From: Denitrificimonas caeni DSM 24390
GTDB taxonomy: Bacteria; Pseudomonadota; Gammaproteobacteria; Pseudomonadales; Pseudomonadaceae
Reading direction: 5' to 3'
NCBI RefSeq assembly: GCF_000421765.1
Contig: NZ_ATXQ01000006.1
Span: 62,001-126,000 of the forward strand
DNA: 64,000 nt
Shown here: positions 24,501-28,772 of the stretch, piece after piece
Layout of the letters: every line of letters begins with the position of its first letter
How positions within the stretch are numbered: position 1 is the stretch's first letter
Program-made: the position numbers and the translations under genes
Notes under the pieces: model-generated
Databases searched by the model: none
What the model saw: the letters and a program-made list of their open reading frames with translations, nothing else
Told to the model about the DNA's origin: nothing

Positions 24501-24645
24501 AATGCGGGCCTGCGGCCCGCGCTCCCAAACAGCAATGCAAGCTCTCGATTGACTCTAGGCTCCACGCAATAAGCACGTCCATAGTCTGCAGGATCACTAC
24601 AATCTCTCAGCACACTCTGGGAGCGCGGGCGGCCCGCCCGCAATA
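24501..24645. repeat. Left REP-pair block (BIME) beside the RAYT gene
   Basis: 145 bases made of REP 4 (24501-24527, inverted) and REP 5 (24617-24645, direct, with a GCGGGCG/CGCCCGC stem) joined by a unique-looking spacer. The whole block recurs at 25464-25609 on the other side of the transposase with about 90% identity, spacer included (AGCAATGCAAG, CGCAATAAGCACGTCCATAG, TCTCAGCACACTCTGGGAG). Confidence 0.88.
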
Positions 24646-24776
24646 CGCTCTTATATCAACACACATCTAAACTTTGCCCGCACGATCCTTCAACAAAAAA
24701 GAAAATCGACTACACTTTCTAGACCATGCTAAGCAATTTCAATATTGCTAAGTAACAATGAAACATGGAGATCACT

Positions 24777-25385
24777 ATGCAAACTCAAGGACGAGTCGCA
24801 GGTAACGTATCAGCAAAAACCACACTTCCAGAAGCTCATAGTCGCGGTTATCTGCCTCACATTGAAGAGGCTGAATTTCAAATGATTACCTATCGGCTTG
24901 GCGACGCACTTCCTACCGAAGTGATGCAACGCTTAGCTCATCTTGGCAGCGAAAAGAGACGTATTGATACTGAGCAGCTATTGGGTGCAGGTTACGGACA
25001 GTGTTGGCTGGCTTACCCTAACATCGCCAAAATCGTAATCGACAACTGGTTGTACTTTGCTGGAAAGCGCTACAGGATTCTGGCCTATGTCGTCATGCCA
25101 AATCACGTGCATCTGTTAATTCATGTGTTCGAAGACAGCTCACTTTCGAAAATTATCCAGAGCTGGAAATCTTACACGGCCAAGAAAATCGCTAAACAAC
25201 TGGACTTAGCTGGACAACAACCGACACTACCCATCTGGCAACCCGACTATTGGGATAGATTTATTCGCAATCAGGCACACCTCGAAGCGGCTATCGCCTA
25301 TATCCATAACAACCCAGTGACTGCTGGTCTTGTGGCTTGCTCGACAGATTGGCGTTGGAGTAGTGATTACAAAAGTCGCTCATAA
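24777..25385 (+). CDS. rayT: REP-associated tyrosine transposase (RAYT, Y1_Tnp/HUH)
   Basis: 202 residues. The HUH motif is visible as VMPNHVHLLIH. The C-terminal block YWDRFIRNQAHLEAA followed by YIHNNPVTAGLV carries the tyrosine region of the IS200-like REP transposase family, and the N-terminus has the family's GYLPHIEEAEFQ. RAYTs cut REP-type single strands and are single-copy, domesticated relatives of IS200/IS605 transposases. The start at 24777 is chosen for the GGAG at 24767-24770; an in-frame ATG at 24765 would add four residues. Bracketed by REP pairs as expected. Confidence 0.93.
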   Translation: MQTQGRVAGNVSAKTTLPEAHSRGYLPHIEEAEFQMITYRLGDALPTEVMQRLAHLGSEKRRIDTEQLLGAGYGQCWLAYPNIAKIVIDNWLYFAGKRYRILAYVVMPNHVHLLIHVFEDSSLSKIIQSWKSYTAKKIAKQLDLAGQQPTLPIWQPDYWDRFIRNQAHLEAAIAYIHNNPVTAGLVACSTDWRWSSDYKSRS

Positions 25386-25463
25386 AATATAATAGCTAGC
25401 TGGATTAAAACGCCATTGAATACAGGCAAATGCACTTAAGTTGCTGTGTACTTAGTAGCCTCT

Positions 25464-25609
25464 AATGCGGGCCAGCGGCCCGCGTTCCCAGACAGCAATG
25501 CAAGTTCTCGATTAACTCTAGGCTTCCCGCAATAAGCACGTCCATAGCCTGCAAACTCACTGAAAATTTCTCAGCACACTCTGGGAGCGCGGGCGGCTCG
25601 CCCGCAATA
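25464..25609. repeat. Right REP-pair block (BIME) beside the RAYT gene
   Basis: 146 bases: REP 6 (25464-25490, inverted) and REP 7 (25581-25609, direct) with the same spacer as the left block. The two blocks are direct repeats 963 bases apart enclosing the transposase and its promoter. Confidence 0.88.
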
Positions 25610-25775
25610 AGAACCTGCATTCTTGTGTCAAAGTCAGTTGAACTCACTCGCGCTTGCCAACCTGATAATAAATTCAATCTAAACCTCGCTCCTAAACACA
25701 GCACGATTAACATACAATACGTCCTCAAAATGGCTCTTCCGAGCAGCCAAGTCGTTATTAAAGAGCTGAACATTG

Positions 25776-25838
25776 ATGAACACAGTAAACCGCCGCTTCT
25801 CTGTCGCCCCGATGATGGATTGGACTTTTAATTTATAA
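25776..25838 (+). pseudogene. dusA': Severed 5' end of the original dusA
   Basis: ATG at 25776 opens MNTVNRRFSVAPMMDWT, then FNL and a stop. The part from Arg to Thr is the conserved N-terminus of DusA and repeats codons 41-51 of the intact dusA at 27696. The bases upstream (25625-25775) are probably the original dusA promoter region. After 25826 the sequence turns AT-rich and unrelated, marking the left end of an insertion. Confidence 0.85.
25794..25826 (+). mobile_element. Left attachment-like direct repeat of the dusA island
   Basis: 33 bases matching 27816-27848 at 30 positions, with a 14-base identical core GCCCCGATGATGGA. Integrative elements that use the dusA 5' end as attachment site are an established class; the position within the gene fits. 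Confidence 0.8.
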
Positions 25839-25946
25839 ATAACTTTAAAATCAATAACTTGCTAAAATTTATTTATTATTGTGACTCTTTTGTGTATCCG
25901 TAAATCTAGCAAACCACTCCAATCGATCAATAGGGAAGGTATTATA

Positions 25947-26441
25947 ATGCGTAAAATTTTAGCAATGGCTCTGATTTATACTGCGCTTGCAGGTTGCGGG
26001 CACTCGCAAATTCAGTACCAACCCTCCGATAGAAACCTTGATTGGAACAAAGCAGTATCGATCATTGAGCAAGGCTTTTATGAAGACTACGGTGCACAAA
26101 AAACACAAGCCGTTGCAGTAACAAGCGAAGCAATCATTTTGTCTGATGGTACGATTTCAAACAGTGTAGGAATTAGCACCGCCAGTCCGATAGCGGGCAG
26201 TGCTTTAATTGTAGGAACTAGCACGACCAAAACAGTCAGCGCTGGCCAGAGAATTTATCTGAACTCTTTAGCCGATAGCATGCTTATGAAGCGCAACGGA
26301 CGCGATCATCGCTATGCTGTCATCATCCGCATAAAGCCCGGAGTAACGGCTCGGAGTGTGTTTTTCAGAACAGAGCATCAAGCAAGAAAATTCTTAGATG
26401 CTCTAGAGTATTTAAAAGTAGCTTACAGTATGGCCAACTAG
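25947..26441 (+). CDS. Island-encoded lipoprotein of unknown function
   Basis: 164 residues starting with a lipoprotein signal, lipobox LAGC with Cys17 (MRKILAMALIYTALAGCGH). The mature part has a hydrophobic Gly/Ser/Thr stretch (about 78-100, SNSVGISTASPIAGSALIVG) and a C-terminal basic half. GGGAAGGT six bases before the ATG at 25947 decides the start over a more upstream in-frame codon. No family recognised. 96 bases separate it from the kinase gene; no terminator is seen between, so they may share a transcript. Confidence 0.75.
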   Translation: MRKILAMALIYTALAGCGHSQIQYQPSDRNLDWNKAVSIIEQGFYEDYGAQKTQAVAVTSEAIILSDGTISNSVGISTASPIAGSALIVGTSTTKTVSAGQRIYLNSLADSMLMKRNGRDHRYAVIIRIKPGVTARSVFFRTEHQARKFLDALEYLKVAYSMAN

Positions 26442-26537
26442 CAATTATAAAACCGTTAACAGCGCAGAAACCAAACGAATGAAACAAACTGTAGCTGCTC
26501 TGTTGTCCCAATCACGGATTAAACTGGTTAAAATTTA

Positions 26538-27272
26538 ATGCAGACAAAAGCTGAACAGCTGATAGCTGAAAAAGCACTCGCTTATGCTAGAAAAACGAAA
26601 AAGCAATTCGCTAAGACTGAAACCAATAAAGATATTTTCTCTCCTGAAGAACATCCTATTACGCTATTAATGGCAGGCTCTCCGGGTGCAGGTAAAACAG
26701 AAACGGCTCAAGAAATGCTTAGTGTCATCGGCCAGGCAATTCACATTGACCCCGACAGGTATCGAGATCACTTTGAAGACTACACTGGGTATAATGCTTA
26801 TCTTTTCCAAGGCGCAACCTCAATACTTGTCAACAAGGTTGTCGATGTCGCTTTAAAAAACGGACAAAGTTTCATACTTGACGGCACCCTTACCAAGTAC
26901 GAAATAGCTAAAAAAAACATCCAAAGGGCACTTGATAAAGGCCGTAATGTCATTATTTTGTATGTATACCAAGACCCTCTCGTAGCTTGGGAGTTTGTGC
27001 TAGCTCGTGAAAAAACAGAAGGACGGCGAATCCACCCTGACACATTTATAGAACAATATTTCGAAGCTCGGAATGTAGTAAACAAGCTGAAAGCTGAGTT
27101 TAAAAGCATGGTCCATCTTGAGATTTTAATAAAAACCATGGCCTACGCTGAGCATAAGAAATCTATACTGCGCTACATTAATGGGGCAACCTCTATTGAT
27201 TCGCACATTCCAGAGCAGTACACTTGCGAGCAGCTCCAAGAGCTAATAAAACGGGAATGCCAAAATGATTAA
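26538..27272 (+). CDS. Zeta-toxin-like P-loop kinase
   Basis: 244 residues. Walker A AGSPGAGKTE lies at residues 46-55 (K53). HIDPDRYRDHF at about 69-79 supplies the Asp/Arg pair found in zeta toxins, and FILDGTLTKYEIAKKNI plus VLAREKTEGRRIHPDTF look like the zeta central and lid segments. Zeta kinases phosphorylate UDP-N-acetylglucosamine and related sugars and kill cells when free of antitoxin; whether this one is toxic is not shown. No epsilon-type antitoxin lies upstream. Its TAA overlaps the start region of a 57-residue gene by eight bases. Weak ribosome site. Confidence 0.78.
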   Translation: MQTKAEQLIAEKALAYARKTKKQFAKTETNKDIFSPEEHPITLLMAGSPGAGKTETAQEMLSVIGQAIHIDPDRYRDHFEDYTGYNAYLFQGATSILVNKVVDVALKNGQSFILDGTLTKYEIAKKNIQRALDKGRNVIILYVYQDPLVAWEFVLAREKTEGRRIHPDTFIEQYFEARNVVNKLKAEFKSMVHLEILIKTMAYAEHKKSILRYINGATSIDSHIPEQYTCEQLQELIKRECQND

Positions 27273-27438
27273 TCGTTTACTAGGTAGAGATGAGAAAGTA
27301 GTCAGCACTGATTTCTCTAATTTTTTTAACAACGCTAAATCAGCAGAGCGTAAAAAAGTTTTTGAACAAGTGTTAACTGGTGCCTGCCGCCGCCAAGAAA
27401 AAGTTCTGGCCGAGCGCTCTCGTAGTATCAATGCGTAA
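27265..27438 (+). CDS. 57-residue partner of the zeta-like kinase
   Basis: Frame from ATG 27265 to TAA 27438 reads MINRLLGRDEKVVSTDFSNF, then a basic helix (AKSAERKKVFEQVL) and a second (CRRQEKVLAERSRS). It overlaps the kinase stop by eight bases, has GGGA about nine bases upstream, and is followed 11 bases later by a terminator, all signs of a real gene. No family recognised. By position it could be an antitoxin placed after the toxin, but this is inference. Confidence 0.65.
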   Translation: MINRLLGRDEKVVSTDFSNFFNNAKSAERKKVFEQVLTGACRRQEKVLAERSRSINA

Positions 27439-27449
27439 AAAAACAAAAG

Positions 27450-27473
27450 AGCCCCTTAAGTGGGGCTTTTTTT
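27450..27473 (+). terminator. Terminator after the island gene pair
   Basis: AGCCCC / GGGGCT stem (27450-27455 with 27462-27467), six-base loop TTAAGT, then seven Ts. Confidence 0.9.
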
Positions 27474-27590
27474 GCCTGCGAATAGATACAATATCCAACC
27501 TCAGCATCACAGATCAGCTACACACGATCTAATTCAGCCACCTCCCTGCCTGTCGTCATTAGCGACCTGCGACTGACCAATTAAGTGAAT

Positions 27591-27602
27591 ATAAGCGCTT
27601 AT
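27591..27602. promoter_or_regulatory. 12-bp palindrome in the new dusA leader
   Basis: ATAAGCGCTTAT is a perfect palindrome about 95 bases before the present dusA start, within the island. It could be an operator of the island-supplied promoter; no regulator is identified. Confidence 0.35.
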
Positions 27603-27695
27603 CGATACTCGATGAAGGTAGTGTCTTCTATGCGATAATAACCATTAATTTTATGCTCACAACCGCAGTGTCACATTTAATTTTACGGGGTCAAA

Positions 27696-28772
27696 ATGTT
27701 ACACCGAGCCGCTCAAAACGTACAAAAACAGCCAATAACAGACAATAACGAACACACAGAAAACACCACAGAATCATGCTTAAACCCAGCAAACCCGCTG
27801 GGTACGGTGTCTAGGCGCTTCTCCGTTGCCCCGATGATGGACTGGACTGACCACCACTGCCGCTACTTTTTGCGGCTGATTTCTAAGCGTGCGTTGCTCT
27901 ATACCGAGATGGTAACCACCGGTGCAATATTGTATGGCGAGAGTGCGCGATTTTTGCGCCATGACCAGTCTGAGCACCCCATAGCGTTGCAGCTAGGTGG
28001 CAGTAATCCTGCAGATTTAGCTGCTTGCACAAAGATGGCGGCTGCGGCAGGTTTCGATGAGGTGAATCTCAATGTTGGCTGTCCGAGCGATCGCGTGCAG
28101 AACAACATGATCGGTGCCTGCTTAATGGCGCATCCGCAGTTGGTCGCTGATTGCGTCAAGCAGATGCAGGATGGCGTAGATATTCCGGTCACGGTCAAGC
28201 ACCGCATTGGCATCAATGGCCGTGACAGCTATGCCAAGCTGTGCGATTTTGTCGGTACGGTACGTGACGCCGGTTGCACAAGTTTTACTGTGCATGCGCG
28301 GATTGCCATTTTGGAAGGCTTGTCACCGAAAGAAAACCGCGATATTCCACCGCTGCGCTATGACATTGCCGCGCAGCTTAAAACTGACTTTCCAGATTTG
28401 GAAATCATCCTCAATGGCGGCATCAAAACCCTTGAGCAATGCACAGAGCAGTTACAAATCTTTGACGGCGTGATGATTGGTCGTGAGGCTTACCACAACC
28501 CTTGGTTGCTCAGTGAGGTTGATCATCAACTGTTTGGCGATGCGCCGCGCGAGATTACCCGTACCGAGATTCTGCAGCAGTTACGCCCTTACCTCGTGGC
28601 GCATATCGCGCAGGGCGGCAAGGCAACCCACATCACTCGACATATTCTCGGTTTAGCACAGGGTTTCACCGGCGCTCGACGTTTTCGCCAGCTGTTATCA
28701 GCAGACATTTACAAAACAGATGAACCCATGCGCATTTATGATCAAGCTGTGGCGGGTCTCGAAGGTCGTTAA
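27696..28772 (+). CDS. dusA: tRNA-dihydrouridine(20/20a) synthase DusA
   Basis: 358 residues, FMN-dependent reductase making dihydrouridine at tRNA positions 20/20a. SVAPMMDWTDHHCR opens the TIM barrel at residue 43; the catalytic cysteine is Cys129 in NLNVGCPSDRVQ; KHRIGINGRDSY and GVMIGREAYHNP follow. The first 40 residues (MLHRAAQNVQKQPITDNNEH onward) do not look like DusA and come from the inserted island, which gave the gene a new start; the original start survives at 25776. GGGG lies about seven bases before this ATG. Confidence 0.93.
   Translation: MLHRAAQNVQKQPITDNNEHTENTTESCLNPANPLGTVSRRFSVAPMMDWTDHHCRYFLRLISKRALLYTEMVTTGAILYGESARFLRHDQSEHPIALQLGGSNPADLAACTKMAAAAGFDEVNLNVGCPSDRVQNNMIGACLMAHPQLVADCVKQMQDGVDIPVTVKHRIGINGRDSYAKLCDFVGTVRDAGCTSFTVHARIAILEGLSPKENRDIPPLRYDIAAQLKTDFPDLEIILNGGIKTLEQCTEQLQIFDGVMIGREAYHNPWLLSEVDHQLFGDAPREITRTEILQQLRPYLVAHIAQGGKATHITRHILGLAQGFTGARRFRQLLSADIYKTDEPMRIYDQAVAGLEGR
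27816..27848 (+). mobile_element. Right attachment-like direct repeat inside dusA
   Basis: Codons 41-51 of dusA; 30 of 33 bases equal 25794-25826. Marks the right boundary of the island. Confidence 0.8.

What the first reader, a model, noticed from the sequence alone, without database searches (positions are those of the whole stretch)
25776..27848. Integrase-less genomic island inserted into the dusA 5' end
The DusA N-terminus appears twice: a severed copy with its own start at 25776 and the working gene at 27696. They share a 33-base near-identical repeat (30 of 33) at 25794 and 27816 that bounds 2.0 kb of AT-rich DNA. Elements that integrate at the start of dusA are an established class and normally carry a tyrosine recombinase. 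This one has only three small genes, so it may be a decayed remnant or a cargo unit moved in trans. It also gave dusA a new 40-residue N-terminus.
Basis: partly seen in the sequence, partly recalled or inferred. Interest (0 to 1): 0.8.

Follow-up and report, generated by a model that had tools for sequence, protein, structure and literature searches.

The report
Integrase-less mini-island at the dusA gene
A 2-kb piece of foreign DNA carrying a lipoprotein gene and a toxin-like kinase with a small partner sits in the start of the dusA gene between two copies of the known dusA attachment site, but the enzyme that inserts such islands is missing, so it is most likely the eroded remnant of a known kind of mobile island.

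Summary
Two cores (25794-25826, 27816-27848; 30/33) bound 1,989 bp of 41% GC DNA. Same-genus genome G007 has the empty site: window 25700-25825 and 27816-28000 meet there through one core. The 10 relatives whose dusA was recovered each have one core. The left flank is native; the 150 nt before the right core resemble right arms of islands encoding the dusA-associated integrase, DAI (median z 4.5 against 31 such arms, 0.9 against 10 native arms). So this is a dusA-specific insertion. No DAI or recognisable DAI piece lies in it, and a DAI query found none in this genome or 11 same-genus genomes.

Cargo: a lipoprotein, a zeta-toxin-family kinase, and a 57-residue protein whose homologues follow zeta in 8 of 8 loci at 47% identity or more, window included. 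A third, decayed core (26493-26525, 24/33; 0 of 1000 shuffles) hints at two accreted units.

Best reading: a CIME-type element (att sites kept, integrase lost), probably eroded in place. Insertion in trans by a foreign DAI is possible but unshown. Of nine other segments under 10 kb between cores in family genomes, four keep a truncated DAI and five none.

The parts
25711..25793 (+). native dusA upstream flank and start codon (left arm of the empty site)
   Evidence: Last 40 nt identical in G007 and 39 of 40 in G008, where they run straight into core and dusA; longer matches of 93.7 and 94.0%; median z 10.7 to genus native arms and 0.2 to DAI arms
25776..25832 (+). severed original DusA start, MNTVNRRFSVAPMMDWTF then stop
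   Evidence: Read from the sequence; same start as in the genus relatives
25794..25826 (+). left core (attL)
   Evidence: 30/33 identical to the right core; only two such places in the genome
25947..26441 (+). lipoprotein gene, 164 aa, no named family
   Evidence: Sub-threshold lipoprotein signal LPAM_1 only; matches in six other genomes of 298 searched, three at 45-52% identity
26493..26525 (+). third, decayed core between the lipoprotein and zeta genes
   Evidence: 24/33 identical; 0 of 1000 shuffles reach 24 (best 20); next best in 64 kb on both strands is 20; its flanks give little independent support
26538..27272 (+). zeta-toxin-family kinase, 244 aa
   Evidence: PF06414 at 1.6e-39; weak match to solved PezT, E 1.3e-4
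27265..27438 (+). 57-aa partner protein overlapping the end of the zeta gene, candidate antitoxin (inference)
   Evidence: Homologues of 52-59 aa directly follow zeta in 8 of 8 loci at 47% or more, window included; no Pfam family for the window's member
27666..27815 (+). right arm of DAI-island type, supplying the new 5' end of dusA
   Evidence: Median z 4.5 against 31 DAI-linked arms, 0.9 against 10 genus native arms, 0.2 against 50 others
27816..27848 (+). right core (attR), inside working dusA
27696..28772 (+). working dusA, longest reading; alternative in-frame GTG start at 27807
   Evidence: DusA equivalog NF008774 at 9.3e-154; ORF

Best explanation
A dusA-specific integrative element entered the conserved core near the start of dusA by DAI-type tyrosine recombination. 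It left the native promoter and start codon on the left (attL) and supplied a replacement 5' end on the right (attR). It then lost its integrase and everything else by deletion except both att sites, the DAI-type right arm, a lipoprotein gene and a zeta-kinase pair. It is now a non-autonomous element of CIME type: it cannot excise by itself, but a DAI arriving later could in principle act on its cores. The zeta pair may have favoured retention as an addiction module. Shown: insertion at an empty site, right-arm type, no DAI found in island or genome. Inferred: erosion in place, the role of the pair, and that the decayed internal core marks two accreted units.
For: Empty site in G007 and G008, one core in each of 10 relatives. 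Right arm of DAI type, left arm native. No DAI relic in the island; no DAI in the own genome or 11 genus genomes by a DAI query. In 4 of 9 small segments between cores an N-terminal DAI piece remains beside the right core, so loss of DAI by deletion is common at this site. The zeta pair also lies in an island with an intact DAI at dusA in G158, directly 5' of dusA in G017, and beside an integrase fragment in G006.
Against: No integrase relic at all remains, and no intermediate or parent element with the same ends was found. Five of nine small segments have no DAI either, and one such unit shows signs of having moved as a unit. The internal core is more decayed than the left core, which simple successive insertion does not explain. 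Two native arms also scored against the right arm in the first run (L009 z 5.2, L005 z 3.9).
Confidence: 0.62

Rival explanations
1. Cargo unit that arrived without its own integrase: a small circle of cargo, arm and core was inserted in trans by the DAI of a co-resident or transient element that has since been lost.
For: Five of nine small segments between cores lack any DAI. The G265 unit, 2.9 kb with a bacteriocin-like gene and no DAI, is 96.9% identical in G150 and 98.4% in G671, while dusA or its region is 88.7% and 93.4%. In G671 the unit lies about 1.6 Mb from dusA, with both junctions inside the core, in a genome with one intact DAI at its dusA island. The window's ends are compact and its genes intact.
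Against: No second copy of the window's unit was found. The G671 case is not clean: no empty ectopic site was found and the copy lies in what looks like a prophage. In G150 the unit adjoins a truncated DAI. The G265-type units carry a near-copy of the left arm at the right end, unlike the window.
Confidence: 0.28
2. Duplication of the dusA 5' end with capture of foreign DNA by ordinary illegitimate or homologous recombination, with no dusA integrase involved.
For: No integrase is present.
Against: The repeat coincides with the attachment core of the known islands, and the right arm is of the DAI-island type rather than a copy of the native 5' end.
Confidence: 0.05
3. Chance repeat or ancestral arrangement shared by the genus.
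For: None found.
Against: Empty site in relatives; best chance match 22 of 33 in 1000 shuffles.
Confidence: 0.01

Closest known systems
dusA-specific genomic islands with a dusA-associated integrase (Farrugia et al. 2015, PMC4482086)
   Same: Same target in the 5' end of dusA, same kind of flanking direct repeats, island supplies a new dusA 5' end (sections 15, 16, 18).
   Different: The 94 islands there are 4,758 to 184,808 bp and the integrase is the only gene common to all. This one is about 2.0 kb and has none. They were found starting from the integrase, so islands without it could not be listed.
CIME, cis-mobilizable element (definition in passages of PMC5704250)
   Same: att sites kept, integration and transfer genes lost.
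   Different: The definition is given for decayed ICEs and IMEs; here the ancestor could equally be a prophage or another island. Cis-mobilization was not shown.
IMEVchUSA3 and related dusA islands of Vibrio (PMC8409611, abstract and passages)
   Different: Those encode an integrase and the excision factor RdfN and are mobilized by IncC plasmids.
Zeta / PezT toxins
   Same: Zeta_toxin domain PF06414; weak match to PezT.
   Different: The conserved small partner lies downstream of the kinase and the window's member has no Pfam family. That the epsilon and PezA antitoxin genes precede their toxin is recalled, from no call.

Membership tests
dusA-specific island of Farrugia et al. 2015 | insertion in the 5' end of dusA between direct repeats of the core | tested here: met
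dusA-specific island of Farrugia et al. 2015 | dusA-associated integrase whose 5' end adjoins that of dusA | tested here: not met
   No DAI or recognisable piece in 25827-27815; none in the genome
dusA-specific island of Farrugia et al. 2015 | island supplies a replacement dusA 5' end | tested here: met
   Right arm foreign and of DAI type; ORF open through it
dusA-specific island of Farrugia et al. 2015 | excision as a circle | not testable with these tools
   Needs PCR or reads
CIME | attL and attR retained | tested here: met
   Both cores, 30/33, plus DAI-type right arm
CIME | integration and transfer genes lost | tested here: met
   Three genes only, none with an integration or transfer family. 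Loss, as against never having had them, is inferred
CIME | can be mobilized in cis after accretion of an element with an integrase | not testable with these tools
   Needs an experiment; the third core hints at past accretion
epsilon/zeta-type toxin-antitoxin | zeta-family kinase | tested here: met
epsilon/zeta-type toxin-antitoxin | antitoxin of epsilon or PezA type beside the kinase | tested here: inconclusive
   Neither other island protein shows a named antitoxin family; a 57-aa unclassified partner is present

The most novel reading that the evidence does not exclude
dusA is a cassette site: integrase-less units made of cargo, arm and core are inserted in trans by dusA integrases and stack up in front of dusA. 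The window shows two such units, held in place by a zeta kinase with a new kind of downstream partner.
Probability: 0.15. Interest if true: 0.7.

Novelty: new member of a known kind. Interest (0 to 1): 0.38.

Why it matters
The published dusA islands were found through their integrase, so that catalogue cannot contain islands without one. This case, with nine further short segments between cores in family genomes, shows that much smaller residents occupy the site. They rewrite the start of a tRNA-modification gene and carry accessory genes. If an incoming dusA integrase can still act on them, they are a hidden, testable pool of mobile cargo. The conserved pairing of zeta kinases with an unclassified downstream protein of 52-59 residues is a separate testable lead.

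Tried and rejected
Integrase relic in the island: tblastn with five DAIs against 25827-27815 gave nothing better than E 0.2. The 32 codons before zeta, which I suspected to be an integrase C-terminus, matched nothing convincing outside this genome (best E 1.4). Parent element with the same ends: among the fetched loci the right end had only hits of about 20 nt; the left end had two short AT-rich hits (47 nt in L076, 34 nt in L091) that I did not pursue. Close relatives of the zeta kinase in genome contigs and viral contigs by peptide patterns: none; the island in plasmids by DNA: none; zeta in phages by protein: six distant records; the lipoprotein in phages: none. Empty ectopic site for the G671 unit: not found by an exact 22-base pattern. 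Its left flank holds a stretch of about 90 nt that recurs widely (some match to the 941-bp flank in 135 of 144 genomes, mostly this stretch); I took it for a tRNA gene without running a tRNA search there, and the unit lies in what looks like a prophage, so its history may be more complex than one insertion. Promoter scan: no + strand candidate near dusA and no excess over shuffles. No structure prediction was run. The names bacteriocin-like, trb-like, TatD-like and XerC/D-like are my readings of sequences, from no family search.

Limits of the counts. In one search two own-genome rows (L111) were left in the non-DAI group; one search repeats the comparison without them. The nine small segments are those under 10 kb among the listed rows. 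One search cut its list short, and re-listed 45 genomes with two or more matches that I picked from its table, so nine is not a census. In G150, G397 and G187 the right core of the small segment is followed by another element or a contig break, not directly by dusA. The genus sample is 12 genomes, some incomplete, and G009 gave no dusA.

Full report
Observation. The window holds two copies of the dusA core, 25794-25826 and 27816-27848, identical at 30 of 33 positions. They are the only two places in the 3.02-Mb genome within three mismatches of the core pattern. The left copy follows a native dusA start (MNTVNRRFSVAPMMDWTF, then a stop); the right copy is inside the working gene. The 1,989 bp between are 41.3% GC against 49.1% for the window, and 10 of 621 windows of that length are as low.

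Empty site. The genus sample is 12 genomes, own included. dusA was recovered in the own genome and in 10 of the 11 others; G009 gave only distant dus matches. Those 10 each have one core. In G007 the window's 25700-25825 (93.7%) and 27816-28000 (84.9%) meet through a single core, and G008 shows the same (94.0%, 80.5%). The 40 bases left of the core are identical in G007 and 39 of 40 in G008.

Right end. In five family islands from which I took an intact integrase of the dusA-associated type (DAI), that gene begins close to the right core and is read away from dusA. Farrugia et al. describe the same layout (PMC4482086; I saw the abstract, part 2 of the text, sections 15, 16 and 18 and some passages). 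I compared the 150 nt left of the window's right core with 31 arms next to a DAI or DAI piece, 10 native arms of the genus and 50 other arms. Median z was 4.5, 0.9 and 0.2. Eight DAI arms scored medians of 3.4 to 10.4 against the other DAI arms. The window's left flank scored 0.2 against DAI arms and 10.7 against genus native arms. So the right end is foreign and of the DAI-island kind, and the left flank is native. Against this, in the first run two native arms also scored (L009 z 5.2, L005 z 3.9).

Integrase. None of the three island proteins matches an integrase family, and five DAIs find nothing in the island. The genome has nine PF00589 matches. Only two of them resemble the DAIs at E below 0.01, at 25-43% identity, and I read them as XerC/XerD. 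A DAI query gave the own genome one match of 20 bits; in the 11 other genus genomes matches were absent, weak or distant (best 75 bits, 31%, in G003).

Small relatives. A core search of 398 family genomes, with 45 multi-copy ones listed again, showed many double-core loci. Among the listed rows nine segments between two cores are under 10 kb: G265, G040, G150, G292, G319, G361, G277, G397 and G187. None holds an intact DAI. Four (G150, G319, G361, G187) hold an N-terminal piece of a DAI next to the right core; five hold none. Of those five, G265, G277, G292 and G397 carry at the right end a 110-207 bp near-copy of the left arm and core, and G040 a 52-bp one. They are therefore built differently from the window's element, whose right arm is not native.

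A unit that may have moved. The G265 segment (a bacteriocin-like gene and a small one, 2.9 kb) is 96.9% identical over 2,984 nt in G150 and 98.4% over 2,882 nt in G671, while dusA is 88.7% and the dusA region 93.4%. In G671 the unit sits about 1.6 Mb from dusA, and both junctions fall inside the core. That genome has one intact DAI, at its dusA island. This suggests movement in trans. But no empty ectopic site was found and the surroundings look like a prophage. It bears on the class, not directly on the window.

Cargo. The zeta kinase (PF06414, 1.6e-39) had matches at E up to 1e-30 in 9 of 198 family genomes, own included. In 8 of 8 loci at 47% identity or more, the window among them, a 52-59 aa protein follows directly. 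The ninth, at 37%, has a distant candidate further on. Three of the nine lie beside dusA: the window; G017, directly 5' of dusA with no second core in the 19 kb read; and G158, about 4 kb from dusA in an island with an intact DAI. In G006 the pair adjoins an integrase fragment away from dusA. I infer that the pair tends to persist in eroded islands; toxicity could not be tested. The lipoprotein has matches in six other genomes of 298 searched, three at 45-52% identity.

Third core. 26493-26525 matches the cores at 24 of 33. None of 1000 shuffles of the island reached 24 (best 20), and the next best in the 64 kb on both strands is 20. Its flanks do not support it: z 0.5 for the left and -0.3 for the right against the window's own left junction. 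The best of 93 arms tried were native arms of G005 and G006 (z 4.2 and 3.6). It may be the scar between two accreted units. Why it is more decayed than the left core is unexplained.

dusA. The long ORF starts at 27696 and puts 40 residues before the core. An in-frame GTG at 27807 would put three. In the five islands with an intact DAI the mechanically listed dusA ORFs start 18 to 23 codons before the core. IMEVchUSA3 gives dusA a new promoter and an N-terminus of native length, with reduced expression (passages of PMC8409611). The promoter scan gave no candidate here.

Mechanism. Shown: insertion at an empty dusA core, a DAI-type right end, and no DAI found in island or genome. Inferred: a DAI-bearing element inserted, then lost its integrase and other genes by deletion, a route that the truncated DAIs of four small relatives make likely. 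The zeta pair may have helped to keep the rest. The alternative, that the unit came in without an integrase and was inserted by another element's DAI, is not excluded.

Placement. By the definition in PMC5704250 (passages) this is a CIME-type element. It fails the one feature common to all 94 published dusA islands, the integrase. My searches for papers holding dusA with cis-mobilizable, and dusA with zeta toxin, returned none. A looser search listed 10 of 99 papers, with the two known dusA papers on top, of which I read the passages and sections named above.

Noticed in passing
window 24501-25609: A REP-associated tyrosine transposase gene (24765-25385; NF047646) lies between two near-identical REP-like cassettes of about 145 nt (24501-24645 and 25464-25609), just left of the severed dusA start.
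   Followed up: no
L084, L096-L101; window 26538-27438: Zeta kinases of this group are followed by a conserved 52-59 aa protein; of nine members scanned the window's has no Pfam match and no Pfam family matches more than one. Candidate antitoxin with reversed gene order.
   Followed up: partly
L103 14476-16567 (reverse strand of the locus, G017): In another genus a zeta gene and its small partner lie directly 5' of dusA, after a TatD-like gene, with no second core in the 19 kb read.
   Followed up: partly
L072, L074, L152-L155 (G265, G150, G671, G348, G309, G528): A bacteriocin-like unit of about 2.9 kb or parts of it recurs between or beside dusA cores in several species and, in G671, away from dusA.
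   Followed up: partly
L074 4819-5523 (G150): A DAI gene is truncated where the left part of an att core (CGCTTC) joins its coding sequence; the break falls inside the core, so it may be a recombination product.
   Followed up: partly
L095 8576-8908 (G006): A C-terminal integrase fragment stands directly before the zeta gene, about 0.2 Mb from dusA in that genome.
   Followed up: no
L081, L087, L088, L091 (G339, G397, G187, G247): Three cores in a row: tandem arrays of dusA-type segments are present in several family genomes.
   Followed up: no
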